A stretch of DNA of 64,000 nt from Polyporus tsugae (Eukaryota > Basidiomycota > Agaricomycetes > Polyporales > Polyporaceae). Location of the stretch: the NCBI GenBank assembly GCA_024305745.1, contig JAHRBS010000014.1, forward strand, positions 7,501 to 71,500, written 5' to 3'. Below, piece by piece: positions 91 through 21,480 of the stretch. The notes below the pieces were generated by a model. It ran no database searches. It saw only the letters and a program-made list of their open reading frames with translations, and was not told where the DNA came from. A program made the translations under genes and the position numbers. How positions within the stretch are numbered: the stretch's first letter is position 1; the number at the start of each line of letters is the position of its first letter.

Positions 91-474
91 ACAGCGTGGT
101 GTACGTCCTGGACGGTAACATCGGGCACTGTCCCCGACTGTTGAACATTTATCCACCGTTGAGTATTGTCCTCGTGTGATAGATACCTCTAAGCTTATGT
201 TCAACGCGGCAGACACGAGGCAAAGTGCGTGCGTCCCACCGCAGCTGTCCGTCCAGGACGGACACATCCGCCACCGCCCAGTACAGCGTGGTGTACGTCC
301 TGGACGGTAACGTCGGGCACTGTCCCCGACTGTTGAACATTTATCCACCGTTGAGTATTGTCCTCGTGTGATAGATACCTCTAAGCTTACGTTCAACGCG
401 GCAGACACGAGGCAAAGTGCGTGCGTCCCACCGCAGCTGTCCGTCCTGGACGGACACATCCGCCACCGCCCAGG
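91..474. repeat. 192-bp tandem repeat x2 containing the palindrome
   Basis: Two nearly identical 192-bp units (91-282 and 283-474). Each holds one full copy of the 17-bp palindrome (247-263 and 439-455) and begins with a degenerate half copy (around 105 and 296). The units differ at the palindrome centre (A in the first, T in the second) and at a few other bases. No coding frame is convincing: the long minus-strand frames here are by-products of the repeat. Confidence 0.9.
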
Positions 475-695
475 GAGGTTCAACTGTTTCCCGCTCGCGG
501 CCCATCGTCCTCATGTTGCACATTGGTCCTGAATTCGACACATGTTGAGTCCTCGAGGCCGCCTTAGCAACGGACACTGTATTCCACCTATTGTATCACT
601 CCAGTCGCAACGACGAGCCTCTCGTCACCGCGTGTCGGGGCCCAGCGGCCCAGCGGGCACCCACCCGCAAAGTCGACAGGTGTCCTGTCCTCCGT

Positions 696-712
696 GTCCG
701 TCCAGGACGGAC
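696..712. repeat. Single 17-bp palindrome upstream of the first gene
   Basis: A full copy of GTCCGTCC-A-GGACGGAC that ends 27 bp before a TATA box and 66 bp before the ATG of the downstream gene. It belongs to the dispersed family described elsewhere in this block. Its position would allow a regulatory role, but nothing in the sequence separates that from chance insertion. Confidence 0.9.
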
Positions 713-739
713 AGGTCTGTATCCCAGTGCAGGCCTCGG

Positions 740-746
740 TATAAAA
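740..746 (+). promoter_or_regulatory. TATA box of the 1028-aa protein gene
   Basis: TATAAAA, 39 bp upstream of the ATG at 779. The spacing is short but workable for a fungal promoter, and it supports the chosen start codon. Confidence 0.6.
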
Positions 747-778
747 TCACATCGCTCCGTGCAAGTCGATCTGCAACC

Positions 779-3700
779 ATGGCGCCACCGCTGTTCCCTG
801 ATGAGCCTCTCCCTCCTCGAACCATCGGCCTTACGGAGTTCGTACAACTCGCTGAACAGTACTGTAACGACGAGAACATCGACCGTTTCGTCAACCTAGT
901 CCTCGCGGGTCGCGCACCCATAACCCGCCCCAATGCGAACACCAACCAACGCCGTCTTTTCATTAATCCCCGTTACGAATGCGAGTTTCCCGAATGTTAC
1001 ACCATTCTTGGCGACTTTGACTCTGTTATCGGTCTCACTCGTCTCCTTCCATTCAGCAAGTCTATCACCTGGCACTTGTTTCCCCCTTTCTCCGAGACCC
1101 TTACCACTTCCGTCCACATCAAGTGGCCTATCACCAGAAATGTAAGTAAATAACCTACATCAATCGTCACCACTCTCACCCACTCTGTTATTCAGAACGC
1201 CACCCTTCAGGTCCCGCTTCACAAAATTCCGAACTGCCTTTGCTTCAAGTTCAGGACCCGCCACCAGGGTCGTCTCTTCTTCCCAAAGCGATACGACCCG
1301 CACGTCCCTCCCACGCTTAGTAACGAGGTCTTGGCCTCCATCTACGATGATGCCATCCGTCCCGCCCTCGGGGCTGTCGCCCCCGAACTCGCAGTCCAGT
1401 GGCCGGTGAATTTCAGTCACGTCACTCGTCTCGTTCGGAGCCGCACTGGCCAGCTCGGCGCCCTTACCAAGGACATCACCCAGGTCTTTCTTGAGGCCTT
1501 CGCGCGCGAGCTCCTCGATCGCCTGGCCCAGCTCGACGAGAGCTTCGCGGATGCCTTCTTCGAGATCGAGGCCAAAGGCGTGAAGGCTTCCAGCGCTCAC
1601 AACCCCCAGGATTGGTGGGCTCGCAGTGAGGCCCTTGCAGCGGTCTTGGACCCCATCGACCAGCAGCTTATTCCCGACGAGGAGTTGGAGTCACGTTGGT
1701 TTGTCGACGTCGCCCTGGAAGTTCACGCTGAGGGCCGGGTTATGCAATGGCTGACCGAAAGTCACACCCGGCTCATTCGACACATGCTTCCCTCTATCTC
1801 AGAGGACCAGGCCATCGCTTTGAAGCGCAGCAAAGCTTTCAAGGAGGACCTCAGCGGACACCTCACAGCATTGTCCGGCTTCCGCCTCGAGACGGGGACG
1901 AAAGGGCGCGCTGACCATGTCTCCTATATCAACGTCTACACCACCGACAAGTCAGCGACCTATCAGCAGCACGCAGGGACCTATCGGCGTCGCACCGCGC
2001 AGGACCTCTTGCCCAACCCTTTCGAGAAGTTCCTTTCCGACGTCGACACCGTCGCAGAGACCTTCGCCGACTGCGCAGGGGGTTCCGGTGTCCTCCAGAA
2101 CGGTGCAGCTCGTATGGAGGCCCGCGTCGGCCTCTTGTATGCCAAGCAGGCTCTCGCAGACATCCCCGACGACCTCGTCACGGAGTCGATTCTCGCCGTG
2201 GACTCCGCCATCTGGTGGTAAGTCCTCTGTCTATGGTTACCTGTAAGCTTTCTAATAGTTCATTTATAAAGGTACTTCAAGTTCTTCCGCGCATCGGCGC
2301 TCTACCGGCTCTTCAAAGAGTTGGCAAGCTCCCCTCCCGATGCTCGTTCTTGGACACCCAGCCTCATGTTGGGTGCTGTCTGCGTCTACATGTTCAACGC
2401 TGTCATCTACCGCCCTTCCGGGAAGAGGATCGAGGAGGAGCTTGGCAGGCAGTGCGCGTTTTGGACCCATCCCCACGTCCACCCCTACGAGGCAGACTAT
2501 GCGGATGCCGAGTTCGAGAACGTCAACCTCGTCCCTTGCACCCTCGACCGTGGCCTCTACTTCATCGCCGGTCTCGTGCGCGACGAAACTCATGGCGTCT
2601 TCCGTCTCGCCGCTGTCCGTCAGTTAGAACGGGAGGAACTCGCTATCCTCTACAAGAAGCCCAACCTACACGACATCGCGAAGGCCTTCGGCGGGCGTTC
2701 TTTTGGCCTCTCCATCTACAGTCGATCACACAAGGACCGGACCAACACCAGGCGGCCCACCGTCCCCATCCAGGCTGTCAGAGGTCAGCTTACCCTTCAC
2801 AATTTCACCCTCACTCAACACGGCGTCGCGCGCATCCCCACCATGCAAATGACGGGCCCTGACATCGAGAACCTCGACGACCCGGAGGACGAAGAAGTTT
2901 CCTTGGATCGCGCCTTCTCTCTTCTCTGGGCCCAGTTCCCTTCCGACATCATCCAATGCTCCCCGAACCAGAAGAATCGGCACAAGCCTTCGTACATCAA
3001 GCTGAGCCAAGCTGCGCGCGAGGCTGTGACCCACGACTTCTTCCGAGCTGTCGAGCTTCCTTTCGAGGCCGCGTACCTGCGCCTTTGCAATGAGCAGCAA
3101 TGGAGAGAACTCGTCTTCGACAAGTTCTTCCCGCCCAAAGGGACTGTTCTCTCCGATCGCCTTCAGAACTTCCGCAACGCCCGCTATTTCTCGAGCTACA
3201 TTGGCGAGATAGGCCGCCTCTCAGACCACGACGCCACGGTTATCCGCGATGAGCTTTGGATTCTATTCCGAGGGCTGTCCTGGCTCCCGCATCCTTATTC
3301 GGATCGCATGTGGAAGAGCAAGGCCTGGCATCCGCTCCCTGCAGGCTGGAGGGCCCTTCCTCCCGGGCACGACGAACCAGCCGTTCATATCGTCGTCAAC
3401 AGCGCCAAGTGCCCCGATCCTCGCGCCGTCTTTCTGCTCGGCGCGCCTAACCCGCGCGCTCGGGAGGCCGAGCCGGAAGACGAGGAAGACGCCGCGTGGG
3501 TCGAGCTAGCCCAACGCCTCCAAACGATCAACATGACCCACGGAGAGCCTCGCCTCGATCTCGCCCACAGCGTCGGTCCCCTCCTCGACAGCATTCGCAG
3601 CCTCCCAGGTGGTGGGCATGCCCGCGAGCGTGAACGTTCCCCGAGCGTTGCGGGGAGTAGTGCCAGTCAGGCCGGAGGGGCGGGCCGCGGTAACGCTTAT

Positions 3701-3973
3701 CGTCGCGAAGAAGAAGAGGAGTCTAGCAGTGGGGTCGAAGTGGGCCGGGCTCTGAGCGAGCCCCCGGTGGATGTCTTTTCCATCGGACTCACTCGCGGTC
3801 ACGACGACTGGAGCCCGCCGCCCTCGCCCGTACTCATGTTCCCTTCTAGCCCGGAGCTCGTTGAGTGTGCCCTTTTCGACGGACTTGACGCGTCTGACGA
3901 GGAACGGGGCCCGAAGCGCCGCCGCGTGAACTCTGACCGTTTCGTAGATTTCGACGCGTACAGTGATGTTTAG
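779..3973 (+). CDS. Unrecognised 1028-aa protein, partner of the SNF2 gene
   Basis: Three exons (779-1141, 1196-2217, 2272-3973) joined by GTAAGT donors give 1028 aa in one frame, with the stop at 3971-3973. The start was chosen because the ATG follows a TATA box and opens the conserved-looking N-terminus MAPPLFPDEPLPPRT. I do not recognise the family. No transmembrane segment or signal peptide is evident. The body (about residues 1-830) looks globular and rich in Trp, Phe and Arg. The last 170 or so residues are low complexity with acidic runs (EEEEESS), Ser/Pro stretches and a basic GPKRRR motif near the C-terminus that could be a nuclear localisation signal. The SNF2 helicase gene follows on the same strand 1.35 kb downstream, with palindrome repeats on both sides, so the two may belong to one element. 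It could be a structural or DNA-binding partner, but that is inference. Confidence 0.85.
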
Positions 3974-4072
3974 TGTTTCGTGAAAGTACACCGAACGTGT
4001 TTCATACAAATATATGCGTAGTTTGATTCTCAGCTGCGAGTGTTCGTTTCACGCGTGGCTCGGTCGAGACGC

Positions 4073-4758
4073 GTCCGTCCTGGACGGACACAGACAGAGG
4101 CGGGGACGTTCTGCCATAGTTCAACTGGCAAGACCGGCAAATGTGTCCGTCCTGGACGGACACATAGGGAGGGAGCCCTGCACTGTACTTTGCTCCAATG
4201 ATCACATTTCAGGGAGCAGAACTGTCCGTCCTGGACGGACACATGGGGTGTGGGAGCTGTTCGGGCGCTCTCAGGCCTCACCGACTCTTTATCCGTCCTG
4301 GACGGACAAACTGGGCTTATGGCCTGCACTATATTTGACATATCATTTGCATTTGTTAATCCTCAGTCGCTGGGCATTTGTTGATCCCCTGTCAATGGCT
4401 AAGCCACGGAGCAACCTCCTTGGCCGAGCCATTGACAGAGGATCAGCAGCCTCTGGGGCCCAGCACTTGACAGAGGATTAACAAATGATATGTCAAATAT
4501 AGTGCAGGCCATAAGCCCAGTTTGTCCGTCCAGGACGGATAAAGAGTCGGTGAGGCCTGAGAGCGCCCGAACAGCTCCCACACCCCATGTGTCCGTCCAG
4601 GACGGACAGTTCTGCTCCCTGAAATGTGATCATTGGAGCAAAGTACAGTGCAGGGCTCCCTCCCTATGTGTCCGTCCAGGACGGACACATTTGCCGGTCT
4701 TGCCAGTTGAACTATGGCAGAACATCCCCGCCTCTGTCTGTGTCCGTCCAGGACAGAC
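4073..4758. repeat. Near-perfect foldback with eight palindromes
   Basis: An inverted repeat with arms of about 280-330 bp around an axis near 4415. Palindromes at 4073, 4145, 4224 and 4291 in the left arm mirror those at 4742, 4670, 4591 and 4524 in the right arm. Each start/end pair sums to the same value (8831), so the arms carry no net indels in that part. The centre (about 4350-4480) is less regular. The symmetry stops at the outermost palindromes: sequence outside 4073 and 4758 is not mirrored. Some copies differ by a base (ATCC at 4291, GGACAGAC at 4742). A further degenerate palindrome lies at 4853-4869. Confidence 0.93.
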
Positions 4759-5232
4759 TCATCTCGCCCCGCGGTGCGGCGCGGTGAGTGAAGCCATCAG
4801 TCAGCTGAGGTACGGTGACATGCACCAGCGAATGCCAGTTTCCACTGTGCGTGTCCGTCCAGGACGCGCTGTCTCAGCCCGGGAATGGATTGCCAGAGAG
4901 GTGCTTTTGCTTGACCTCCTAGAAGTAAATAACAAGCCCATCAACAAGTGCAGCCCCGCACCCGCGTTGGGTACAAAGAAACATACCGCCCAGAGTATCG
5001 TGGATCTCCGCGAGACTCGGAGTCCGAGGACGTGACAGGCAGGCCACGGAGCATGTGGTCGTTGTGTCCGCGGCCATCACGTCGAGGTTTCTATTTAGGA
5101 AGTCAATTGCAACCTCCACGAGGTTCTTTTCCCGAAAAGGCCATGCAACTTCCTCGAGGGATCGTTGAGGACACCGCGTGTTCAGGGTCGGGCCAGGGCT
5201 CATTGTGGTCGCCGCCGCCTCATGTTGGGCGG

Positions 5233-5239
5233 TATATAT
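5233..5239 (+). promoter_or_regulatory. TATA box of the SNF2 gene
   Basis: TATATAT, 92 bp upstream of the ATG at 5325. The interval is pyrimidine-rich (CTCCCTCCAACCCCC), as is usual near fungal transcription starts. Confidence 0.6.
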
Positions 5240-5324
5240 CAGACAGAGTTCGATGCGCCCGCTCCCTCCAACCCCCTTTCTCCCCACCACCTTCAAGCTC
5301 ACCAGCACCCACCAACTCGACAGC

Positions 5325-8300
5325 ATGCCCTCCCTCGACAACGTCAGCCACCTCCTCACCATCTGCGCGGACACGCCGGAGTCGTTCACGTGGAACGTTT
5401 GGCAAGACCGTACCGGCCTCCTCGCGATGCCGTTCGGCCCAGAGGCGACTTACAAGACGGCCGGCATGAACAAAAAGGAATACAAATTAGCAAAGGTTTT
5501 TTATCGGCGCTGGTTGGAGGAAGTGGGGTCCGCCAAACGGTTGCAGTTTGTTCGCGGGCGGACCGACGCGCACCAGGAGGGGCGCGTGATCGTGAAGAAG
5601 TGGGCGGCTGACAAGTGGGCGGAATGGGAGATCTCGGAGTTGGTCGCTTCGACTCTCGATACCTGCAGCTTCAAGACGTTCGACGTCCCCAAGGCCCTCA
5701 AGCGCGACCAAGTAGTTTATTTAGTGTAGTTGTTTATTATACGGTTTACTGACTTATGTGCACAGTGGCCGAATGCGACGGACCTCGGTATCCGTGACGT
5801 AGTCGCCCCCAACCTCGCCCTTGCGATGTTCGGCCCCGACTGCGTCACGGGGGTGGGGTCGATCCAGGTCGTCCACATCCCCCTCATGCCGGTCGTTGGG
5901 GGTCTCATCGTTTCGGCGTGGGACTCGAGGGGGCGGGCGTGGAAGCGGGCGCGTGCGGGCGCGGTCAAGAACGAGGATAAGTTGGCGCGGGACGTTGCAG
6001 GTAAGCCCCAAGTCCCATTTCGCAGCTTGCAGGCTGACCTTTGTTTGTAGCACTCGAGTCCCCCGACGCAGTGCCCACCCCCTCCGAGATCGCTCGGATC
6101 ATCCAGCGTATCAAGCGGACGGTCACCAAGTCGGAATTGTTCGGCGACGCGGCCATGGTGGAGCTCGTCGCTGCGTGGAAGACCAGGCTCGAGCAGATGT
6201 ACGAGGTGGCGGCGAAAGTCAAGGAGGCGAAGCACGACCGTAAACACCTTTTGTTACTGTTCTTACATTTGTGTTACTGACGCGTTTGATTTACAGGCAT
6301 TCCCGCCGGCCTCCTGAAGGCCCTCAAGGCCCTCGCGGACACGCCAACGGTGCACATCGTCCTGTGCGAGCTCGAGCAAGCGATGGACGACCTCCCCGAA
6401 CACTACCTCGACGCGGTCGCCGAAGCTGCCGACGAGTTCGACTTCTCGGACTGGCTGACGGGCGTCGAGGACCTCCAGGACAAGGACCCGCAGGAGCTTT
6501 GGGCCGGCCTTGGGCTGAACAACGAGCAGATCCCTGGGTTCAACGAGGTCGAGGATCCGCGTGGCGAGGTCAACCCCTGGGACCCGACGCAGTGGGCTAA
6601 GTTCGTCAACACCGACAAGGCGCTCGCTTTCGGTCCCCGGTGGCATCAGCTCGTCGGGATCACGAAGATGTGCGAGCTCATCATCAAGGGCAAACCCCTC
6701 CTCCTCATGGACCAAGTCGGCGTCGGCAAGACGCTCCAGATCGTCGGCGCCATAGTCATGTACCCGATGCTTCGCGCGTACTACCAGAGGAACAAAAGGT
6801 TCCCCCCGCAATTCAGTAAGTCTTTGCCTTTTCTGCTCGTTACTTGCATTTACTAACAGTGTGTATTACAGAGGGCCTGAAGTGCGACACGCCGGACGGG
6901 AACTTGCCCGACCGTCCCCACCTCATCATCGTCCCGGTCCCGCTATTCGACCAATGGATGTTCGAGTTCAAGCGGTACGTCAAGTTCGGCTCTGTCGACA
7001 TCTACCCGTACAAGCACCAGTGGGCCCAGTCCGGGAGGATGGCGATCTGGGACGAAGTGTTCCACCTCAAGGACGACAAGCAGACGCTGAGCCACAAGGT
7101 TCTGCTCGTCGCGTACACGGTAAGCAGCCCAGCTTTGTTTATTAACTTCTGAATATGCATGCTAACGTCTGTAGGCCGCCGAGTCCGATTGTTCGCAGCG
7201 GTTCACGAACACGAAGAAGATCGCTCCCCAGCGGCCCGAACGTGACTCCGCGCTGCCCATGAGGTCGATGCTGTACGATTACCAGTTCGGCATCACCACC
7301 ATCGACGAGGCGGCCAAGATGCGCAACCCCAGCCACCACTGGACGACAATGAACGAGCTCTCCCTCCTCTCCCACTGCACCATCGCGGCGACGGCGACGC
7401 CCATCACGAACTCGCCCTTGGTAAGTACGTTTCTTATGCTGGTTGTGGGACCATACTGACTGCCCTTTAACAGGACTTGGTGTACATCGGCCGGTGTATC
7501 GGGATCCCCGCCTGCGAGGAGGAAACACTCTTGGTCGACATGAAGAAGAAGCTCATGGCCGCCGCGCGCAAGTCCAACATCGAGTTCCGCAACGCTCGCG
7601 AGGACGGCGACTTCGTACAGGGGATCCTCAACGGCGAGATCGACCTCCCGGCCAAGAAGGAGCAGGTCAAGCAAATGACCTCGTACACCGTCGCGCTTCG
7701 CAAGATGTTCAACGGCCACACCATCCGCCGCACCCTGGACGCCGTCGACTGGGAGGGGCGTCCCATCTCGGGGCTGAGCCCTTACGTCGCCCAACAAATA
7801 ATGCTCACGCCGTTGGACGAGGAGTCGGAGGTGTTGGAGGCGACAGCAGCCGCGATCGTCGCTGAGCACGACACCGCGCGCACTGCCGCGATGGTTGCGC
7901 AGGCTGAAGGACACGTAAGTCTTCTCGTTCTCGTTGATACTCAAGACACACAGGGCGGACGCTTCGAGACACGACCGGGTCTCGAAGTGTCCGTCCTGGA
8001 CGGACACACAGGGGCACAGTGCCGCGTCCCAACATGCGGCAGGCTGGAGTGTCAGAGGTGTCCGTCCAGGACGGACACATAGCGCGCCGATGCCTGTTCA
8101 CGGTTTCGCACTGGTGGCAATCGTGATGCAAGCACGGTGGCTGCAGGTGTCCGTCCGGGACGGACACTTCTGCGCTGACTCCTGTCTATGGGCCGGATGC
8201 CGCCAAGAGTGTCGTGGATCTCCGCGAGACCACTGGCAGGCGGGCCCCTCCCTCTCACCTGTCCGTCCGGGACGGATACCATTGGCGCGTGGGGAGACGA

Positions 8301-10788
8301 GAAGACATCGGGCAGGCCCCTCGCTCTCCTTGTCCGTCCTGGACGGATAGATTTCCACTGAGACCTCGTGAAATGCGGCGTGGTGGATTTCACGTCGATT
8401 TGTTATTGAACCGCAGGGGCCCATCCCCCGGTGTCCGTCCGGGACGGACACACTTTGTTCATCTCCACTGTTGCTCACACACTGTTCATCCAGGCTTTCT
8501 ACGGTCGTTTCCGCCGCAGCCACCTCCACTACAAGCTCCTTGATGACCCGCTCTGGGCGCCGAAAGATATGGAGGAGTGGGAGGCCACCACCTCTACGAA
8601 GCTCCAGAACCTCATCGACATCCTCCTCCATCACCTCGCCGACGACAACGCCCCGCTCCTTCGCCGCCCCTCGCAAGACAGCAACGACTTGGAGGCGGAT
8701 CCCGAATGGAAAATGCAGGAGCGCGACGACGAAACCGACTATCCCGACCGCATCATCGTCTACGTCGCCTTCCCTTCCAACAACCACCTCATCACGAAGG
8801 CAATTAACACTTTTCTTCTGTCGTTATCATTACTTATACACTTTGATTTCGCAGGTCTTGAGCTTCTACGGCATCAAGTACATCGAGGTCAACGGCTCCA
8901 AGCGCATGTCCGTGCGCTCAAAGGACATAGCCAAGTTCCGCAACTCCGACCGCGACGGACCCCGTGTTTGCCTGTTGTCGAACGTTGGCACGATGGGCCT
9001 CAACCTCCCCCAGGCCAACATCCTCGTCGCCTTGGTAAGGTTCTATGTCTTACTGTTGTTATTTCTTACCTAACATCCAAACAGGATCAAATGTGGTCGC
9101 ACCAGGACTTGCTTCAACTGATCGGTCGCATTTGGCGCCACCCCCAGAAGAAGCAGGTGTTGGTTTACCAGCCTTGCCTCGAGCACGCCACGGACATGTT
9201 CCTGAGCGTTCTCTCGTTCTCGAAGAACGCGCTCCTCGCCGCCTTCACCAAGTCGTCAAAGCAGACAAGTAAGTTTTTAATTATTATCTTTATGACTCTA
9301 ACAGCTGTTTACTAATGTACTGTAGAATCCATCTTCCGTCATCTCCTTCCGGCCGGGCTCCGGGATGACAGTGACGAGGATGACGAGCCCGAGCCGGAGC
9401 CCGCGACGAAGACCAAGGCCAAGCCTGCGGCCAAGGCAGCCACCCGGGCATCCACCCGTGCATCCACCCAGGCGTCCACCCGGGCGTCCACGTCCAAGGC
9501 CAAGGCCAAGTCGCCCGCCGTCGCTGACGAGGACAAGGAGAGCTCGGAGAGCGAGGACAAGGAGAGCGAGGACGAGGAGGGCGAGGACGAGCAGCCGAAA
9601 GGCAAGGCCAAGCCTGCGGCCAAGGCAGCCCCCCCCGCGTCCAAGCCCAAGCCCAAGCCCAAGCCCAAGCCCAAGTCGCCCGCCGTCGTCGCTGACGAAG
9701 ACGAGGAGAGCAAGGAGAGCGACGACGAGGAGAGCGAGGACGAGCAGCCGAAAGGCAAGGCTAAGGGTAAGGCCAAGGCAGCCCCCCCCGCCTCCACCCG
9801 TGCATCCACGCCCAAGCCCAAGCCCAAGCCCAAGCCCAAGCCCAAGCCCAAGCCCAAGTCGCCCGCCGTCGTCGCTGACGAGGGCGAGGAGGCCGAGCAA
9901 CCGAGAGCCAAGGGCAAGAGCAAGGTCGCCGCCACCGCAAGGGTCGCTCCCGAGGATGACAACGACCAGCAGCCTGAGCCTGCCCCAACCCAGCCCTCCA
10001 AGCGCGACCGCAGGAAGCTCTTGCCAGAAGTGGTGCTCGAATCGCGCCAGTCCCAGTCTGCGCCGGCGGGGAAGAACAGCAAGAAGGACAAGAAGAAGCA
10101 CCCCGCGCCCGAGCCCGCGCCCGAGCCCGTGCCCGAGCCCGTGCCCGAGCTAGCCCCCCAGCCCAAGGTGTCCAAGCCCAAGGTTAGGCCTACACCGAGG
10201 GCACCAGCGGCCTCATCGTCGGCGCGCACCGAGGACACACGCGCGGAGCCCGGGCCCTCGCGTCAGACCCGTCCCGACGCCCCCGCCACCCCCAACGCTC
10301 CCCCCTTGAAGCGCACGGCCAACGTGTCAGGGCATCGCGATGAAGAGGTGGACGACGAGCAGAAGGCCAAGCGGCAGAAGAAGAAGGAGAAGAAGGAGAG
10401 GCAGGCCCTAAAGCGCAAACGCGAGGAAGCCGAGAGAGAGCAACTGGCCCAGGCAGTCACCCTCCCCCAGAACTTTCATTTCGACTTCGACGTGGACCCG
10501 GCGCCCGAAGGTCGCAGCCCACCGGCGAAGAGGGTTGCAGGAGAGGGCGCGGGTGCCTCTGGGAGCGGCGCGGGTGCCTCTGGGAGCGGCGCGGGTGCCT
10601 CTGGGAGCGGCGCGGGTGCCTCTGGCTCTTCTCCCGCCGGCGGTCGTGGTGGTGGGGCTTCTGGCGGCCGCGCATCTAGGCGCGACGATAGCGACAGCGA
10701 TCGGCCAATGGAGGCCAAGGACATTTTTCTGAAGCGGGTCGCGGGGAGCGGCCGGCCTGGTAAGGCGAGTCAGCTCGGCCGCAAGTAG
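5325..10788 (+). CDS. SNF2-type helicase/ATPase (1465 aa)
   Basis: Eleven exons keep one frame: 5325-5711, 5766-6000, 6051-6239, 6297-6815, 6872-7119, 7175-7420, 7474-7914, 8494-8799, 8855-9034, 9085-9268, 9326-10788. Helicase motifs are clear: Walker A DQVGVGKT (about residues 409-416), motif II DEAAK (570-574), a motif III-like TATPITN (near 600), motif V GTMGLNL (near 900) and motif VI QLIGRIWR (928-935). The WRHPQ ending of motif VI resembles Rad5/Rad16-type SNF2 proteins. SNF2 enzymes move along DNA or remodel chromatin using ATP; the substrate here is unknown. About 490 C-terminal residues are low complexity: KPKPKP runs, acidic SED-rich blocks and GASGSGA repeats. Intron 7 (7915-8493) is 579 bp against 50-60 bp for the others and is filled with palindromes. 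The intron at 8800-8854 has a GC donor. No RING or chromodomain was seen. Some splice choices are unverified. Confidence 0.92.
7915..8493 (+). repeat. 579-bp intron holding six palindromes
   Basis: GTAAGT donor and CAG acceptor with flanking exons in phase 0. Palindromes lie at 7989, 8060, 8149, 8261, 8332 and 8433, spaced 71-112 bp apart, with centres T, A, G, G, T and G; those at 8261 and 8332 end in GGAT. The spacer at 8200-8230 shares 29 of 31 bases with 4986-5016 upstream of the same gene. It looks like a palindrome array that grew within or entered an ordinary short intron. Confidence 0.85.
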
Positions 10789-11184
10789 ACTTGTTATTCT
10801 TCGCATATCGCTCTCGTTTGACTCGGACAACTGTACTATAGCATTCTGGATACGACGCACGGCTGAGATTGTTTGTTGGACTGTCGATAGGACTGTATCT
10901 TCCCATATGTTTACCTTATCCATACCTCTTAATCTCAATCTGTGACCCCCCCTTCAACAGAACAGCACGGGTTGAATTGCGCGGTACAATAAATGGATGT
11001 AGGGCTTACCTGCCTTGTCCATGACGGATTCCAAACCTTTTGACGAACAGGCCTGACCAGATCCCCTCCCGACCAGCTCATCTACATTCCTCTCCCCGAC
11101 GAACTGTCGCGTGTATCAATCCTCAAGGCTGTGCTCACGCGGAATATCACAGGTGTGTGCTGCTGGCGCTGTGCACCCAGAAGA
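10789..11184. other. 3' flank of the SNF2 gene
   Basis: No gene seen. An AATAAA lies near 10,988, about 200 bp after the stop codon, and may be the poly(A) signal. Confidence 0.4.
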
Positions 11185-11258
11185 GCCCGTCCTGGACGGA
11201 CACGGCTGCACGGGCACCCACACACCCCTCGCACGACACCTGTCCGTCCAGGACGGAC
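11185..11258. repeat. Pair of palindromes
   Basis: Copies at 11185-11201 (first half GCCCGTCC, one mismatch) and 11242-11258 (perfect), 57 bp apart with unrelated sequence between them. Confidence 0.85.
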
Positions 11259-11469
11259 GGCCACGCACCCATGCCTGTCTGGCCCATGTCCAGCCACGTG
11301 TGAAAGCAGCCGTTCGTGCGTGTTCAAGTTCTATGGGTCGTTGTTCAGCGTGCCACTTGTTATTAGCGCAACTTCTCGTTATCCAATAACTATTACTTGC
11401 CGAATTTCATTATGACGAATCACACTCGCAATTGTACAGATGTAAATGGCAGCAGGTGACAGAGCAGTG

Positions 11470-11770
11470 GTATCCGTCCTGCACATGCAGTGTGGCAGGT
11501 GTCCGTCCAGGACGGACGGCTGGGGATCGGGGGACGCACGCGCAGTGCGGCAGGTGTCCGTCCAGGACGGACGGCTGGGGATCGGGGGACGCACGCGCAG
11601 TGCGGCAGGTGTCCGTCCAGGACGGACAGGACGGGTGCTCACACCCCAGTGGTATCCGTCCTGCACATGCAGTGTAGCAGGTGTCCGTCCAGGACGGACG
11701 GCCGAGGATGGTGGGACGCACATGCAGTGCGGCAGGTGTCCGTCCAGGACGGACAGGACGGGTGCTCACA
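11470..11770. repeat. 55-bp palindrome-bearing tandem array
   Basis: Five perfect palindromes at 11501, 11556, 11611, 11683 and 11738. Three steps are exactly 55 bp; the 72-bp step contains a segment that also begins the array (degenerate ATCCGTCCTG at 11472 and 11654), giving a larger period of 182 bp. The spacers are near-identical GC-rich sequence, so the open frames through the array are repeat artefacts. Confidence 0.9.
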
Positions 11771-13468
11771 CCACAATGCTATACCGACTGGCATTACTAT
11801 GTATTGCTTTGTTCTCATTCAATGCTGCTATTAAACATTGCATCAATAGACGCATTAACATCAAGTCTTGACACCCTGTGTGTTATTATTGGTACACTGG
11901 TGTAGAGTGTATCTGCTCCGTCTTTATCTAGTAAAAAGTTGATGACTAACTCACTACTTCGCCATCAAGTTCTACGTCTACGTGGTGTTCACATAAGCAG
12001 CTCATTAGCTACAGCCACCTCAGGGCGTTAAGCTCCAGACAGATCATCACATTATACACAATATTCGCCTAACACAAATCAATGTAACTCCCAACTTGTA
12101 ACCCACAGGCCGTCCTACTAATCCTCACAAGCCAAGATAAGCTGTAGCAGTTTTTGCCTACTGGAAACAGCATCCATCATACCAAGGTTTCTTATTCACT
12201 TCGCGCTTGAAAGAAATAGCCCTCGACGGTCCACCACTGTCAAAGCTAGATTCCGGTAAGCAAACGCCTCTAGAAACAGACAACTTGGGCTTACGGTGGG
12301 GTGCTTACGTCCCTCAGGCGAGTAGTGGGGCGAACGGGACTGTAAGCCCTTGCAAGACGCCAGGGAGAAGAGTCGACAATGCCCATAGGCTGAGCAGGAG
12401 GTGGAGCCTCGCTGAAGCGCACAGGAGGCAGAGGCTGAATAGGAGGGGGTGGTAATGGGCCTAGAGGAGGAGGGCGGCACGGAGGGAGCTAGCAAACCAT
12501 ATTCATCAGAGGGGTTGGCATCCTGACAAACATGTGGATCTGACCTTTTCAAGTGAGCGTATTCTAACCCCACGATGCTGTGTTGCATTGTAGTTGGCGA
12601 GTTCAATTTCGTCGTCAAGCTCCCGCCCAGATACCAAGCAATCGACCCCGAGGTTGTTGGTGAGAACAATGGAGCACTGCCCGGAGTCATTGGTGCCAGA
12701 CTCCGTAGAAGTGAGACTCCCATCCTCTCCATGTTCGTCAGCATCCTCCGCAGAGAGCGGGTGAAGGCTCTGAGCATCCACGTCCCGCGGACGCACGGGG
12801 GGGCGGACAGTCTCGTCGGTACTGGTGCTGGTGCGTGACGCTACGGGGAGGGGGCGCATCGTGACTCAATGCGGGGTCAGTGAGGTCGGGACTGGATTAA
12901 ATATCCCGAAAGTGTGAGAGTCGTGCCTTCCTTACGGCAAGGGCTAGGACGACAAAGTAAGGCCGAAGTCCGGAAGCTGGCCTAGGGGGAAAATAGTTAG
13001 CCCACAAGCGAAGGTATGCGAAGCTACCGTTTACGGTAAGGTTCCAGCCAAACCACAGCCGAGGAAAGGTCGATGTCAGCCAGTTCTCGGACTTCGACCT
13101 TACGTCATTATATCACTGCCGCGGAGTGCGCATGACGGAGTAGAGGTTCGAGATATCCGTCGAAGCTATACTGCGGTTCTGGGACTAAGTCCAACAGGGC
13201 AGGCCTCTCCATTGAGGAAGAACATTGACTACGGTTCAATGTCAGCACCTTCGTGCATGGTATCCGTACTTGAGGAATGTGTCGGCCACCACCGTCGTTC
13301 GCGCAGTGCCCGCAGACTCTTGCCCTATAAGTTGCTCATGACGCAATGTGATAACGAAATTGAAGCCTTGACAGCGAAGTACACCCTTAGTTTGTTGTTA
13401 ATATTCACTCCAACTGCTGAGGTTAAGCCCCGCACGCATATGTGGTGGACAGGGCCAGTGCAGCAGGT
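11771..13468. other. Gene-poor stretch, possible decayed ORF
   Basis: Mostly non-coding. Minus-strand frames at about 12,859-12,506 and 12,777-12,196 read through polar sequence but match nothing I recognise. They have no clear start context, so I treat them as decay or chance. A small MITE-like foldback lies at 12,950-13,108 and is listed separately. Confidence 0.4.
12950..13108. repeat. Small MITE-like foldback
   Basis: Inverted ends of about 28 bp: GTAAGGCCGAAGTCCGG near 12,956 pairs with the reverse complement of sequence ending near 13,105 (GTAAGGTCGAAGTCCGAG), both continuing into a CTGGC-type motif. The element is about 155 bp. I found no obvious target-site duplication. Confidence 0.5.
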
Positions 13469-14020
13469 GTCCGTCCAGGACGGACAGGTCGGATGTAAGG
13501 CCCTATGCAAACTGGCCTGTAGAGTTATCATTCGACGCTACTATTAAGTGGTGGATTAATGAATGCATCAATGCCTTTACCTGGCCGAGTTATTAGCACA
13601 CCAGTGCGCATTTATTGGGTTCTACTGGTGTTAGTTAATGATTAATAAAGAGGTGAGTGCGATGCTATGGCATTAACGGACGCCAGTCATTAGTTCACGA
13701 TCAGTGGTGGGAGCACAGTCAGGCGCCACGCTAGTGGTGTCCGTCCAGGACGGACACCTCTAGCATGGCGCCCGACCGTGTTCCCACCACTGACCGTGAA
13801 CTTACCACTGGCTTCCGTTAATGCCTTAGAGTAGTGTCGCATTCACCTTTTATTAATCATTAGCTAACACCAGTAGAACCCAATAAATGCGCACTGGTGT
13901 GCTAATAACTCGGCCAGGTAAAGGCATTGATGCATTCATTAATCCACCACTTAATAGTAGCGTCGAATGATAACCTTGCAGGCCAGTCTGCATAGGGCCT
14001 TACATCCGACCTGTCCGTCC
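13469..14020. repeat. Foldback with a palindrome at each edge and at its axis
   Basis: Arms 13,486-13,738 (253 bp) and 13,756-14,012 (257 bp) are inverted copies around a perfect palindrome at 13,739-13,755. A perfect palindrome forms the left edge (13,469-13,485). The right edge is a half palindrome, GTCCGTCC at 14,013-14,020, which is cut by the next element. The arms are AT-richer than the flanks and have no convincing coding frame. Confidence 0.92.
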
Positions 14021-14256
14021 ACTTCATGCACTAGTCATCTCCAAGACAGGCCATGACATTATGTTACAAAACAATATGCGATATGACAACGTATCAACCA
14101 ACTCCATGCGCAAAATACAGACACCCCCGCCAAACATCGCTGTCGCCGACCCAACCATCACGCGTGCACCCTCCTCCCGCCTTCTCCGTCCTCTTCGCCT
14201 GCTTTCTCGCCCACTGGAGGGTATCGAGGACGGCCGCCGGAGGACGACATCAACGC

Positions 14257-15003
14257 TCACGGCGCGGCTGTCGAGCCCCAGAACACACCGTGCGTGACAA
14301 CGGTGGTCACTGCAGAGAAACAGTTAGCAACTCTACACCGCGAATAGATCGGGTAATACGCACGCTCGCGGAGACTGGTAACGTCTTGTTTGAGGTACAC
14401 CAACAGTTGCACCCTCGCGTCCACGACCTCCGCATCCGCCATTTGCAGCGCGAACTCTGCCCCGTTGGTCACCTCCTGGGCATACTGAGCTGCGGCTTTC
14501 TCGGCCTTCCTGCGTGCTTGCAAGTACGAGTGCATCGCGTTGCTGAAGTTGTCTTGCGCCGCGTTCATCTGCCTCACCCGCGTAATGATGGAGTATTCTT
14601 CACCAAACTCCCTCAGCGCCCGACTGCTAGGCCGCTCGTGATACGGCAGGCTGGCGAGGTGGCTGTACAGCGTGCTGAACTCGCTATCCACATTCACCAA
14701 CGGAGGCAGCGCGCGCACTAGCATTAGGAATGCTGACATCGCATACGACGCGCTGAACCTAACAGGCTGCGGCCTCGGGCCTGGGATGGGGGTCGATGGT
14801 GGGGATAGGTTACTGGTGACAATGCGGCCGACGAAGGCCTTGAGCTCATAGGACACAAACTGGTCGACAGAGTTCATAGCGGTGAGAATGACAGTGATGC
14901 GATGGCTGCTCTCCCAACTTGCGGTCCCTTTATATTCATCGCCAGGCGGGCTCATCCATGCGGCCAGCACCTCCACGGCCTTCCTTTTCACTTCACCGTC
15001 CGT
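14257..15003 (-). pseudogene. Left-arm copy of the foldback gene, start codon lost
   Basis: Homologous along its length to the right-arm gene (16,119-16,873) in inverted orientation. The codon matching that gene's ATG is ACG (15,003-15,001), so translation would need another start. The rest of the frame is open, and the single intron near 14,360-14,303 keeps a GT donor (GTGCGT) and AG acceptor, followed by a second exon ending in a similar STAAP tail. The product (about 230 aa) has an Ala/Glu-rich, coiled-coil-like C-terminal third. Similarity to the other copy is patchy: blocks of about 40 and 36 identical codons alternate with clearly diverged blocks, which suggests gene conversion between the arms. 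Function unknown. Confidence 0.7.
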
Positions 15004-15570
15004 CCCATAAGTCCTCCCTTCTTGCCGGGGTCTCCATCAACACTCCTTAGTACATTCAAGTCCATCAGGTTCATTCTATACATAGACAGTCATGTTCCTC
15101 GGTACCGCGGAACATCCCTTCCCTTCCTTCCTTCTACAACAGAACACGTAATTCCTATATCAGGCCACTTCGTGTCCGCTTCAGAAGCCAATGTGGGCGT
15201 GAACCTACTATATTGTTAATTGACAGAATATGACGTCCTCCCACACTGTGCTATATGTTTTCTACTCTTTGTGTTTCACCTACACATATGTTCTCACTCA
15301 ATTGTAAATGGGATTGAACTCCTGTGAGAAGTGTGTGACGAGACGGTTGTCGAAGTCCTCACCAGCCGAGTGAGTGTCTCTAGCAGCAGTCCTCCAAACC
15401 TATTCTCGGTTCTACCATCAGTGAAGTTTGTACTCGCAACTGGTGCACATTTATTGTGTTCTACCCGTCTTAGCCAACAATTAAAGAGGTGAATGCGACG
15501 CTACTTTACGGCATTAAAGGAAGCTGATTGTAAGACTAAGGGCAGTATGGTCAGGCGTCATGACAGCGGT

Positions 15571-15587
15571 GTCCGTCCGGGACGGAC
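15571..15587. repeat. Palindrome at the axis of the 3-kb foldback
   Basis: GTCCGTCC-G-GGACGGAC. It lies at the symmetry axis of the 14,021-17,006 element and is flanked by GT and AC, so the symmetry extends to 21 bp. Confidence 0.92.
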
Positions 15588-16118
15588 ACTCTGCACGGGT
15601 TGGGACCAAGTGCGGTACTCGCTGAGCCGCCAAAACAGCAAACGTCTCCAACTGACGTACTGCCACTAATAGATACTGTCCCTTGCGAGTGCAAACTTCA
15701 CTGATGGTAGAACCGAGAATAGGTTTGGAGGACTGCTGCTAGAGACACTCACTCGGCTGGTGAGGACTTCGACAACCGTCTCGTCACACACTTCTCACAG
15801 GAGTTCAATCCCATTTACAATTGAGTGAGAACATATGTGTAGGTGAAACACAAAGAGTAGAAAACATATAGCACAGTGTGGGAGGACGTCATATTCTGTC
15901 AATTAACAATATAGTAGGTTCACGCCCACATTGGCTTCTGAAGCGGACACGAAGTGGCCTGATATAGGAATTACGTGTTCTGTTGTAGAAGGAAGGAAGG
16001 GAAGGGATGTTCCGCGGTACCGAGGAACATGACTGTCTATGTATAGAATGAACCTGATGGACTTGAATGTACTAAGGAGTGTTGATGGAGACCCCGGCAA
16101 GAAGGGAGGACTTATGGG

Positions 16119-16873
16119 ATGGACGGTGAAGTGAAAAGGAAGGCCGTGGAGGTGCTGGCCGCATGGATGAGCCCGCCTGGCGATGAATATAAAGGGACCG
16201 CAAGTTGGGAGAGCAGCCATCGCATCACTGTCATTCTCACCGCTATGAGCTTCATCGACGACTTTGTGCACCAGGAGGTCATCAACTACGTCACCCGGAC
16301 TGTCTCCCGCCACCCATCCACACTTACACAATCGACCCCCATCACAGGCGCGACGCTGCAGCCTGCTAGTTTGAACGCGTCGTACACGATGTCGGCGTTC
16401 CTAATGCTAGTGCGCGCGCTGCCTCCGTTGGTGAATGTGGATAGCGAGTTCAGCACGCTGTACAGCCACCTCGCCAGCCTGCCGTATCACGAGCGGCCTG
16501 GCCTTCGGGATCTGCGGGAGTTTGGTGAGGAATACTCCATCATTACGCGGGTCAGGCGGATGAAGGCGACGCAAGACAACTTCTGCGCAGCGATGCACAC
16601 GTACTTGCAAGCACGCGGAAAGGCCGAGGAAGCCGCCGCTGAGTACGCCGAGGAGATGAACCAGAGGACGGAGGGCAAGCTGCACATGGCGGATGCGGAG
16701 GTCACGGAGGCGAAGGCGCGTCTTTTGGCGCACCTCAAAGAAGACATCACGAGTCGCAACGAGTGTGAGTATCAACCCGATCTGTTCGCGGTATAGAGTT
16801 ACTAACTGTTTTCTCTGCAGTGACCACTGTTGTCAGGCACGGTGTCTACTGGGACACAGCAGCGGCACCGTGA
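16119..16873 (+). CDS. Unrecognised 232-aa coiled-coil protein of the foldback element
   Basis: Two exons (16,119-16,764 and 16,821-16,873, GTGAGT donor, CTGCAG acceptor) encode 232 aa. The ATG at 16,119 is the only start that keeps the frame; the upstream ATG at 16,114 meets a stop within a few codons. The N-terminus MDGEVKRKAVEVLAAW is followed by a hydrophobic helix-like middle (MSAFLMLVRALPPLV). From about residue 145 to 215 there is an Ala/Glu/Lys-rich stretch that probably forms a coiled coil. There is no signal peptide, zinc finger or transposase triad that I can see. It mirrors the decayed copy in the left arm. Its presence in a mobile foldback suggests a role in the element or a captured host gene, but neither can be shown. 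Confidence 0.7.
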
Positions 16874-17006
16874 GCGCCGATGTCTTGGGTGAGAAAGTAG
16901 GACGGTGTCTGTACTGCGTGTATTGCTTAATATGTTGTCGCATTGCATATTGTAACTCAATGTCATGGCCTGTCTTGGTCTAGGAGATGGACTTAGTCAA
17001 TGAAGT

Positions 17007-17491
17007 GGACGGACAGCTCAGATGCTTGTCCTGCCTCCCGCTGCAAACTGGCTTGCAAGGTTATTATATCAGTATTGCTTCGTTCAATGCCACTATTAAG
17101 TGGTCAATTGATCAATGCATCAATGTCTTTACCCCGCCGTGTTATTAGCATACGGGACAGTATTCATTAGTAGCAGTATATCAGCTAAGTACTGCACTTG
17201 GTCGCACCCCATGCACAGTGTGTCCGTGCAGGATGGAGACCTATGGCCCGACGCCTGACCGCACACGCACTACCGATGGGCAGAACAACAAGATATGGGC
17301 ACTAGTCTACCAATAATTCAGCCGAATAAAGACTTAAAGATCAGTTAATGTTAATGCATCAATGCACCGCATAATAGGGGCATTGAACGAAGCAAAAGAG
17401 ATAGGTGCTTTGTAATGACCATGCAGGCCAGTTGGCACATCATTGCAATATGAGCCAGGTCTAACACCGGACCTGTCCGTCCTGGACGGAC
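17007..17491. repeat. Diverged foldback with a degenerate central palindrome
   Basis: Left arm 17,015-17,221 and right arm about 17,239-17,474 are inverted relatives: both contain TTGCTTCGTTCAATGCC and an ATTGATGCAT-type segment in mirror orientation. The axis is a decayed palindrome (17,222-17,238, three mismatches). The edges are the half palindrome at 17,007-17,014 and a full one at 17,475-17,491. Part of the core (GGGACAGTAT, GCACTTGGTC) also occurs next to the axis of the 3-kb foldback. Confidence 0.75.
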
Positions 17492-18025
17492 ACCTGCGGG
17501 ACTGCCCTTGCCCCACCACATGTGCGTGGTCCTATACTCGGCTGTCCGTCCAGGACGGATACCCCTGCTCTGCCCCCTGCTCTCCTTTATTCTCAATAGT
17601 GGCATTGAACGAAGCAAAAGGGATAAGTACTATGTAATGACCATGCAGGTTGGCACATCATTGCAATATGAGCCAGGTCTAACACCGGACCTGTCCGTCC
17701 TGGACGGACACCTGCGGGACTGCCCTTGCCCCACCACATGTGCGTGGTCCTATACTCGGCTGTCCGTCCAGGACGGATACCCCTGCTCTGCCCCCTGCTC
17801 TCCTTTATTCTCAATAGTGGCATTGAACGAAGCAAAAGGGATAAGTACTATGTAATGACCATGCAGGTTGGCACATCATTGCAATATGAGCCAGGTCTAA
17901 CACCGGACCTGTCCGTCCTGGACGGACACCTGCGGGACTGCCCTTGCCCCACCACATGTGCGTGGTCCTATACTCAGCTGTCCGTCCAGGACGGATACCC
18001 CTGCTCTGCCCCCTGCTCTCCTCTA
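17387..18025. repeat. 218-bp tandem repeat x3 with two palindromes per unit
   Basis: Units start near 17,387, 17,605 and 17,823, the last truncated. Palindromes lie at 17,475, 17,544, 17,693, 17,762, 17,911 and 17,980: a 69-bp step inside each unit and a 218-bp period. In each pair the first copy has centre T and the second centre A with a GGAT end. The first unit overlaps the right arm of the preceding foldback. These are the last palindromes in the window. Confidence 0.92.
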
Positions 18026-18324
18026 TCTTCCCACCCTTATCCTCTTTATATCCTCCTTGCTCACTCCATCAATGTGGATGTAAGTCCACTTACCACTCCG
18101 ATTCTCAGTTGCTAATACCGGACTCCTTACTCCCTTATCACATCCGACTTACTGTTCTCTTTGTACGGTGCTGGCGCTAATGGTCCCTCGCTTAGGAGCC
18201 AAGCGCTTAGCGCTGGCTAGGCAGGCGCTTAGTGCGGTTTAGCCGGTCGCTTAGGAGGGCTAAACCCTACCCTAGGGGTTATTTCATCCCTAGGGATAGA
18301 GGGCTGAGATGTTCCCATAACCCT
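18026..18324. repeat. 299-bp direct repeat, left copy
   Basis: Nearly identical to 22,121-22,419 in the same orientation and with the same length. It starts TCTTCCCACCC and ends CCATAACCCT, and contains several CGCTTAG motifs and a CCCTAGGGG-type inverted motif. It abuts the palindrome tandem array on its left. The last codons of the OrsD-like gene lie inside it. No TG...CA ends and no target-site duplication, so a simple LTR is unlikely. Confidence 0.9.
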
Positions 18325-20262: not shown

Positions 20263-20740
20263 AAGGATGAAGAGTGAAGAGGCAGTGATAAAGGTGATTA
20301 ATAGATGATGGTGGTTCAGGTTCAAGAGAGGGTGGGAAAAAATATGCACTGCCAGCATTCCATAATAGGAAGGCTTGTCTTATCTTATCATAGTTAATCA
20401 GACTGTCAGTCATGTGTTATTGTAATAGCTATGACTAATGTTGTATAGCCACATCAAAAGTCATTTCGACTTTTCAGTGCTTATATAAGCCAAAAAAGCG
20501 CCCAAAAAGTCGTTTCGACTTTTTCAGTGCTTAGATAAGCAAAAAGCGCTCAAAATTACTTATCTGTGTATACATAAGTGATCAAAGAGAGATTAGAAAT
20601 GAACCAAGATAGGTGCTTGCTTCAAGCCACTTGAACACTATGAGGAATGTTATTACGTGTCTTAAAAACCACCTTGTCCCACCTCACCCCAGTTTTGAAT
20701 AACTCTACACAATATGCAGTGGTAGTTGAAAAGTCAAACA
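20263..20740. other. Non-coding stretch with twin hairpins
   Basis: No gene. Two related units of about 55-60 bp near 20,459-20,565 each carry the palindrome-like AAAGTCRTTTCGACTTT followed by CAGTGCTTA and an AAAAAGCGC run. Confidence 0.6.
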
Positions 20741-21480
20741 GCCGGCAAGCACCAACCAGGAAAGCAATGACCCCGAAACAAAGGGCAACACACAGACACA
20801 GTCCATGGCCATCCAGAAATCCACCTCGCCCCAGCTCGCCCCGGCCCTGGACGCTGCTGCGCACTTGGTCGATAATGCAGGGTGGGCAGATAATCAAACA
20901 GCCGGCAAGCACCAACCAGGAAAGCAATGACCCCGAAACAAAGGGCAACGCACAGACACAGTCCATGGCCATCCAGAAATCCACCTCGCCCCAGCTCGCC
21001 CCGGCCCTGGACGCTGCTGCGCACTTGGTCGATAATGCAGGGTGGGCAGATAATCAAACAGCCGGCAAGCACCAACCAGGAAAGCAATGACCCCGAAACA
21101 AAGGGCAACACACAGACACAGTCCATGGCCATCCAGAAATCCACCTCGCCCCAGCTCGCCCCGGCCCTGGACGCTGCTGCGCACTTGGTCAATAATGCAG
21201 GGTGGGCAGATAATCAAACAGCCGGCAAGCACCAACCAGGAAAGCAATGACCCCGAAACAAAGGGCAACACACAGACACAGTCCATGGCCATCCAGAAAT
21301 CCACCTCGCCCCAGCTCGCCCCGGCCCTGGACGCTGCTGCGCACTTGGTCGATAATGCAGGGTGGGCAGATAATCAAACAGCCGGCAAGCACCAACCAGG
21401 AAAGCAATGACCCTGAAACAAAGGGCAGCGCACAGACACAGTCCACGGCCATCCAGAAATCCACCTCGCCCCAGCTCGCC
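20741..21480. repeat. 160-bp minisatellite, about 4.6 units
   Basis: Units begin at 20,741, 20,901, 21,061, 21,221 and 21,381 (GCCGGCAAGCACC) with only scattered point differences. The last unit is cut after CCACCTCGCCCCAGC near 21,480. Because 160 is not a multiple of three, the open frames through the array are coincidental. Diverged CCACCTCGCCCC segments recur near 21,640 and 21,812. Confidence 0.93.

What the first reader, a model, noticed from the sequence alone, without database searches (positions are those of the whole stretch)
247..17996. Dispersed 17-bp perfect palindrome family, about 34 copies
GTCCGTCC-N-GGACGGAC (often flanked by T/A or GT/AC) occurs about 34 times with at most one or two mismatches. 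It lies in at least five contexts: tandem arrays, foldback edges, foldback axes, an intron and a promoter region. Surrounding sequences are mostly unrelated, so the palindrome itself is the conserved unit. The centre base is free (A, T or G) while the arms are constrained, which is what a dimeric protein site or a hairpin-forming recombination site would show. I know of no named fungal element with this signature.
Basis: seen in the sequence. Interest (0 to 1): 0.92.

Follow-up and report, generated by a model that had tools for sequence, protein, structure and literature searches.

The report
Helicase-linked palindrome arrays near telomeres
A 17-letter DNA palindrome is repeated along a helicase-carrying block near the chromosome ends of a fungus, and two distant relatives of that helicase gene have palindromes of the same layout but different spelling in what looks like the same intron, as if each block keeps its own address label.

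Summary
In detail: 34 copies in the window (chance 0.05) and 236 exact copies in the 43.2-Mb genome. Of the 224 listed singly, 223 lie within about 41 kb of a contig end. The block encodes an SNF2-type helicase (11-exon model, 1465 aa, no stop) and an unknown gene; 0 of 34 palindromes lie in their modelled exons. Six sit in one 579-nt helicase intron; the other nine introns are 50-57 nt.

The palindrome is not the whole unit: T/A usually flank it, and a CAGG box recurs exactly 19 bp out (13 of 57 non-redundant half-flanks; shift null mean 0.68, maximum 5 in 20,000).

New here: two diverged helicase loci (35-54% aa) carry other 8-N-8 palindromes, ACCCGACC-N-GGTCGGGT (C5) and GGCC(C/T)TCC-N-GGA(G/A)GGCC (C2), with 5 and 3 sites in the gap matching that intron.

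Best explanation: site arrays for a dimeric DNA-binding protein of a subtelomeric element, whose specificity changed together with its sites. The protein is unidentified. Rivals: hairpin-driven recombination with conversion, micro-element spread, decayed satellite.

The parts
247..712 (+). Palindromes 247, 439, 696 upstream of gene 1; the last lies just upstream of a TATAAAA box and the gene-1 start codon; 192-bp tandem unit 89-473
779..3973 (+). Gene 1, unknown protein family (approximate exons 779-1090, ~1221-2218, 2321-3973)
   Evidence: no Pfam match in the two pieces scanned; homologue at C2 with 46-57% aa identity
4062..4769 (.). Foldback with four palindromes per arm (4073, 4145, 4224, 4291 / 4524, 4591, 4670, 4742) between gene 1 and the helicase gene; its asymmetric centre has the opposite orientation in C13-L, C14-R, C16-L and one of two C16-R copies
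   Evidence: orientation read against the helicase strand
4853..4869 (+). Palindrome with 2 mismatches, outside the foldback
5325..10788 (+). SNF2-type helicase gene, 11 exons, 1465 aa, no stop (my model)
   Evidence: Pfam PF00176 7.4e-16 and PF00271 5.1e-12 on the first 989 aa
7915..8493 (+). 579-nt helicase intron (other nine 50-57 nt) holding palindromes 7989, 8060, 8149, 8261, 8332, 8433
11185..11754 (+). Array of seven palindromes downstream of the helicase gene, partly a 55-bp tandem repeat
13469..14020 (.). Foldback with a palindrome at its axis (13739) and one at its left edge (13469); the right edge ends in a half palindrome
14246..16884 (.). Large foldback with inverted copies of an open frame; palindrome 15571 lies 14-18 bp from its axis
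17424..18077 (+). 218-bp tandem repeat, two palindromes per unit (17475/17544, 17693/17762, 17911/17980)

Best explanation
The palindromes are arrays of binding sites for a dimeric, sequence-specific DNA-binding protein that belongs to a subtelomeric element carrying gene 1 and an SNF2-type helicase. One site is 8-N-8 bp, usually flanked by T and A, with a weaker outer half-site about two helical turns out. In the window block the sites lie upstream of, between and downstream of the two genes and inside one helicase intron. Each diverged helicase locus has its own version of the dyad (A: GTCCGTCC-N-GGACGGAC; B: ACCCGACC-N-GGTCGGGT; C: GGCC(C/T)TCC-N-GGA(G/A)GGCC), so protein and sites have changed together. 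Shown here: motif, outer box, absence from the modelled exons, link to the block, three dyad versions, sites in the gap at the same intron position. Inferred: that a protein binds, that it is element-encoded (gene 1 is my first guess), that the SNF2 ATPase is recruited, and that the purpose is control, silencing or spread of the element among chromosome ends.
For: 34 copies against 0.05 expected; 223 of the 224 exact sites listed singly are near contig ends. CAGG at offset -19 in 13 of 57 non-redundant half-flanks, shift null mean 0.68, maximum 5 of 20,000 (word and offset were noticed first, then tested on the same sites); arm centre to box centre is about 21 bp. 0 of 34 sites in modelled exons of gene 1 and the helicase, 7349 of 18,100 bases. 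Helicase paralogues at C2 and C5 (35-54% aa) have gaps of 574 and 673 bp at the place of the window's 579-nt intron; 5 exact B sites lie in the C5 gap and 3 C sites, one mismatch each, in the C2 gap. Families segregate: L007 has A0 B1 C19, the window A39 B0 C1, L023 A5 B11 C0 at up to 3 mismatches; the four A sites of L023 with up to 2 mismatches lie in a fragment 99.6% identical to the window block. C sites have T at -1 in 18 of 19 half-flanks.
Against: No protein identified: no Pfam match in two gene-1 pieces, both structure predictions failed (mean pLDDT 31.0 and 36.7). Family B lacks the T/A flank and the -19 box. Only 13 of 29 non-redundant A palindromes have CAGG at 19 bp on either side. 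The three arms share 4 of 8 positions, only modestly unlikely (p 0.02 to 0.07). Site density in the C2 gap is not significant alone (p 0.09). Block copies are too alike to test selection, and palindrome arms are not spared: 2 differences in 544 bases against 1 in 3358 nearby outside the foldback, 2 in 640 against 11 in 2284 inside it. 5 of 18 spacers fold better than shuffles (z below -2), which a pure binding array does not predict. The match to C5 exon 7 stops 14 residues short, so some of that gap may be exon. Most A copies come from nine near-identical block copies and are not independent.
Confidence: 0.5

Rival explanations
1. The palindromes are hairpin-forming recombination or replication hotspots. 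Single-stranded hairpins provoke tandem and inverted duplications, and conversion among chromosome ends keeps the arms alike. No binding protein is needed.
For: The 19-mer folds alone at -7.5 kcal/mol as DNA. Palindromes lie at or near two of three foldback axes and at a foldback edge, in each unit of the four non-coding tandem arrays seen in the block (55, 70/71, 192, 218 bp), and bound a 68-bp indel between C3 and C8. Block copies are 98.0 to 99.97% identical. One C site has both arms changed in step (C2:14643), and 5 of 18 spacers fold with z below -2.
Against: Does not predict a box at a fixed 19 bp, the absence from modelled exons, or three dyads of one length at the same intron position. 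The foldback inversions are explained by the long arms. The 68-bp indel needs only ordinary recombination or slippage.
Confidence: 0.22
2. A very short mobile element: the palindrome, with or without flanks, was copied into many places inside the subtelomeric block.
For: 17 of 33 sites compared have no alignable flank with another, and lone copies of A and B lie inside contigs (C4, C13).
Against: No empty site or target duplication was found. Copies are almost confined to contig ends, often 55 to 112 bp apart in arrays, and absent from the modelled exons.
Confidence: 0.1
3. Decayed subtelomeric satellite: the motif is what is left of old tandem repeats and has no function.
For: A spacing near 70 bp recurs in several arrays, and the 70/71-bp array shows an intermediate state with identical palindromes and diverged spacers.
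Against: Neutral decay would not spare one dyad and one box in many contexts, nor give the same layout with another spelling at the paralogous loci.
Confidence: 0.1
4. A transcribed RNA structure (hairpin RNAs of about 70 nt).
For: One spacer (L012:9439) is a strong hairpin, z -6.1, and four more have z between -2.0 and -3.0 (5 of 18 in all). On one strand the common GGAT variant still leaves a G-U pair.
Against: The 18 spacers average z -0.86, and 13 of them are unremarkable; no Rfam hit at gathering score in the window.
Confidence: 0.05

Closest known systems
Subtelomeric RecQ-like helicase genes of fungi (Agaricus bisporus var. burnettii; PMC7473861, passages read; Ustilago, Magnaporthe and Metarhizium seen only as entries in its reference list)
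   Same: Helicase-bearing sequences near many chromosome ends in near-identical copies
   Different: Here the helicase is SNF2-type by Pfam, with a partner gene of unknown family and dyad arrays; 'palindrom' occurs 0 times in that paper's main text. A separate OrsD-domain frame in this window may belong to the RecQ-linked kind (recalled link).
ParB-parS and ParB/Noc specificity divergence in bacteria (PMC7383237, seen in search listing and start of abstract only)
   Same: Related proteins with different DNA preferences
   Different: Bacterial; no ParB-like gene found in the Pfam scans; no binding shown
CENP-B box of alpha satellite (recalled)
   Same: 17-bp protein site kept in otherwise diverging repeats
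   Different: Not an 8-N-8 palindrome; centromeric, whereas these are near chromosome ends
PstI palindromes and GC clusters of fungal mitochondria (recalled; search listing, no paper read)
   Same: Short GC-rich palindromes dispersed with unrelated flanks
   Different: Nuclear here, with an outer box and a linked helicase gene
Zn2Cys6 transcription-factor sites (recalled)
   Same: A and B both contain everted CCG-N7-CGG
   Different: C has CCC or CCT instead; no such factor was found in the block

Membership tests
Subtelomeric helicase elements | Helicase gene in near-identical copies at several chromosome ends | tested here: met
   Exon 7 at 99% identity at 9 places, each within about 32 kb of an end of C3, C6, C8, C13, C14 or C16
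Subtelomeric helicase elements | RecQ-type helicase | tested here: not met
   Pfam hits are SNF2-rel_dom and Helicase_C, with a weak ERCC3_RAD25_C below cut-off
Dimeric-protein operator array | Symmetric half-sites, free centre, many clustered copies, mostly non-coding | tested here: met
Dimeric-protein operator array | A protein that binds it | not testable with these tools
   No binding data; homologue search switched off
MITE or other transposon | Target duplications or empty sites | tested here: inconclusive
   One 68-bp presence/absence between palindromes, equally a deletion between repeats; no systematic search for target duplications was possible
Structured RNA | Compensatory changes or consistent folding | tested here: inconclusive
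   No matched arm changes among the 10 inexact A sites (9 have one change only), one in family C; 5 of 18 spacers with z below -2; Rfam 0 hits at gathering score
ParB-parS-like partition system | ParB or ParA homologue | tested here: inconclusive
   None among the Pfam hits, but gene 1 is unassigned and parts of some blocks read N

The most novel reading that the evidence does not exclude
A nuclear 'address' system. Diverged subtelomeric elements each encode a DNA-binding factor and keep arrays of its private 17-bp dyad in their promoters and in one helicase intron, with specificity switched between lineages so that coexisting elements do not cross-react, like incompatibility groups of plasmids. 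Lone internal sites, including an A and a B dyad 249 bp apart on C4, would be host or relic targets.
Probability: 0.3. Interest if true: 0.93.

Novelty: new variant of a known kind. Interest (0 to 1): 0.8.

Why it matters
Subtelomeric helicase elements are known from several fungi, but how they persist and spread is unclear. A helicase element with its own site arrays, and relatives whose sites were re-spelled at the same intron position, would give a ready experiment on how subtelomeric DNA of this kind is recognised and how DNA-binding specificity changes together with dozens of sites.

Tried and rejected
Rejected: chance; one longer alignable repeat (33 sites compared, foldback duplicates left out beforehand; 17 stay singletons and 16 fall into six small groups); a general telomere sequence (13 of 18 first stretches and 11 of 13 last stretches of contigs have no A site at up to 2 mismatches, but these are only 5-10 kb long, some partly N, and C13-R has copies deeper in); viral origin (4 viral contigs with one site each, not followed up).

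Led nowhere: structure predictions of gene-1 pieces; Pfam on gene-1 pieces and on ten frames around the C4 sites (0 hits); selection test among block copies (too similar); sequence model R1 could not be run on this genome; paper searches showed no description of these dyads in the rows listed, from a partial open-access library. AAAGTCGA-N-TCGACTTT (4 sites) is part of a longer hairpin and was set aside.

Full report
OBSERVATION. The motif GTCCGTCC-N-GGACGGAC occurs 34 times (up to 2 mismatches) in window 247-17996, against 0.05 expected. The window is bases 7501-71500 of contig C3 of a 43.2-Mb, 18-contig genome. Many contig ends carry CCCTAA/TTAGGG repeats. Genome-wide there are 236 exact copies and 0 for the reversed control. 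Three complementary patterns add up to all 236 (39 + 112 + 85). Of these, 224 were listed singly (39, 100 and 85); 223 lie within about 41 kb of a contig end, and one is internal (C4:276365). The 12 unlisted follow C16:2908749 in the tool's order. Of the contig-end stretches that I fetched, 13 of 18 first stretches and 11 of 13 last stretches (5-10 kb, some partly N) have no A site at up to 2 mismatches.

THE BLOCK. The sites belong mainly to a subtelomeric block whose helicase exon 7 is found in nine copies at 99% (C3, C6, C8, C13 twice, C14, C16 three times). The block carries gene 1 (about 779-3973, no Pfam match in the two pieces scanned) and a helicase gene (5325-10788). My joined-exon model has 11 exons, 1465 aa and no stop, with SNF2-rel_dom 7.4e-16 and Helicase_C 5.1e-12. 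Nine of its ten introns are 50-57 nt; the tenth is 579 nt (7915-8493) and contains six palindromes. None of the 34 palindromes lies in the modelled exons of these two genes, which cover 7349 of 18,100 bases; other open frames were not modelled. The last upstream site (696-712) lies just upstream of TATAAAA and the gene-1 start codon.

ANATOMY OF A SITE. Flanks are often unalignable between sites: with neighbouring palindromes masked, 16 of 2145 half-flank pairs exceed the 99.9% null against about 2 expected, and 17 of 33 sites stay singletons. But the unit is larger than 17 bp. T precedes in 48 of 58 non-redundant half-flanks. A C(A/G)GG box stands 19 bp from the edge: CAGG at exactly -19 in 13 of 57, circular-shift null mean 0.68, maximum 5 in 20,000 trials; the next offset has 4. 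Word and offset were noticed before they were tested on the same sites. Of 29 non-redundant palindromes 13 have it on at least one side. Arm changes are little help: of the 10 inexact sites, 9 have one change and the tenth (4853) has two on one arm. Neighbours in arrays are often 55-112 bp apart, with 67-72 recurring. Of 18 spacers, 5 fold with z below -2 and one of these is a strong hairpin; the mean is -0.86.

REARRANGEMENTS. C8 has 68 bp more than C3: one palindrome plus a 51-bp hairpin spacer between two palindromes. By spacing and by the centre-C palindrome, this form is in C6, C8 and C13-L, and the shorter one in the other six copies. The asymmetric centre of foldback 4062-4769 lies the other way round in C13-L, C14-R, C16-L and one of two C16-R copies (read against the helicase strands). 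Palindromes lie at the axis of foldback 13478-14020 and 14-18 bp from that of 14246-16884. Ordinary homologous recombination suffices for these. Among block copies the palindromes are not spared: arms differ at 2 of 544 bases against 1 of 3358 nearby outside the foldback, and at 2 of 640 against 11 of 2284 inside it; two of the four come from the 68-bp indel.

THE DECISIVE COMPARISON. A protein search found two diverged helicase loci, at C2:10755-12108 and C5:22362-23760 (35-54% identity). Both show a gap, of 574 and 673 bp, where the window gene has its 579-nt intron; the C5 exon-7 match stops 14 residues short, so that gap may include some exon. A de novo scan of the fetched loci for 8-N-8 palindromes returned, besides family A, ACCCGACC-N-GGTCGGGT in L023 (C5) and L024 (C4), GGCCCTCC-N-GGAGGGCC in L007 (C2), AAAGTCGA-N-TCGACTTT (4 sites, set aside), one pair and six singles. 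Genome-wide, B has 35 exact sites: 30 at C5:15385-31413, 3 near the C17 right end, 1 internal on C4 and 1 internal on C13; control 0. C has 6 exact sites, all on C2, control 0. With T/A flanks, Y/R at one position (chosen after seeing the variants of L007) and up to 2 mismatches, C has 32: 26 at C2:2918-16762, 2 near the C13 right end and 4 elsewhere, against 4 for the control. Five B sites (C5:22770-23217) lie in the C5 gap; three C sites (C2:11211, 11362, 11515, one mismatch each) lie in the C2 gap. Under uniform placement over the span of each family these densities have p 0.008 (B), 0.09 (C) and 0.0007 (A). Further B and C arrays lie on both sides of those helicase matches. C2 also has a gene-1 homologue (46-57% aa) with C sites on both sides. 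A gene 1 at the C5 locus was not sought. C sites have T at -1 (18 of 19 half-flanks) and their own outer G run near -16 (14 of 19 at -16); B sites keep neither T nor CAGG. One C site (C2:14643) has both arms changed in step. The three arms share C3, C4, C7 and C8, only modestly unlikely by chance (p 0.02-0.07).

INTERNAL SITES. The one internal A site (C4:276365) lies 249 bp from an exact B site (C4:276614). This is hard to credit to chance (inference). The 25 best alignments of the 10 kb around it to the other loci are the motifs with short flanks only (up to 39 bp), the 151 bp around the A site are single-copy, and ten frames have no Pfam match. It may be a host target or a relic.

INTERPRETATION. 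Dyads of one layout, re-spelled at each locus and present at the same intron position after the helicases diverged to 35-54%, are best explained by a dimeric DNA-binding protein whose specificity and sites changed together. Which protein, and to what end, is not shown. Against it stand the lack of a binder, the failed structure predictions, the weaker flank conservation in B, the modest arm similarity, the folding of some spacers and the unread C2 and C5 introns. Structure-driven recombination with gene conversion is the main rival. It explains foldbacks and tandem units, but not the outer box or the placement outside exons.

KNOWN SYSTEMS. As a subtelomeric helicase element it resembles RecQ-like elements (PMC7473861, passages), but the helicase is SNF2-type. 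It would work like operator or parS arrays with diverging specificity (PMC7383237, listing and start of abstract only), without evidence of membership. Paper searches listed no description of these dyads; the library is partial and, apart from PMC7473861, no paper was opened.

Noticed in passing
G000 C4:276365 and C4:276614 (L024:4966 and 5215): Lone internal A and B dyads 249 bp apart, far from either end of the contig, in a stretch whose ten scanned frames have no Pfam match
   Followed up: partly
G000 C13:1521124: Lone internal exact B dyad
   Followed up: no
window 4983-5016 and 8197-8230: A second shared box of 34 bp at 91% identity (ending TCGTGGATCTCCGCGAGAC) in two different palindrome-bearing non-coding stretches
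   Followed up: no
window 8261-8277 versus L012:9439-9523: 68-bp presence/absence: palindrome plus 51-bp hairpin spacer; present in 3 of 9 block copies
   Followed up: partly
window 4350-4480: Asymmetric centre of the foldback in opposite orientation among block copies
   Followed up: partly
window 18796-19554 (-): OrsD-domain open frame in a stretch with 85-89% homologues at C7-L, C13-L, C5 (about 35 kb in) and C3-R; possibly the subtelomeric RecQ-linked gene family (recalled)
   Followed up: no
window 20457, 20506; L011, L015: Another palindrome, AAAGTCGA-N-TCGACTTT (imperfect in the window), inside a longer hairpin
   Followed up: no
window 20734-21481: 160-bp tandem repeat, 4.7 copies, also near the C1 left end
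   Followed up: no
window 8800-8854: Helicase intron with GC-AG rather than GT-AG ends in the model
   Followed up: no
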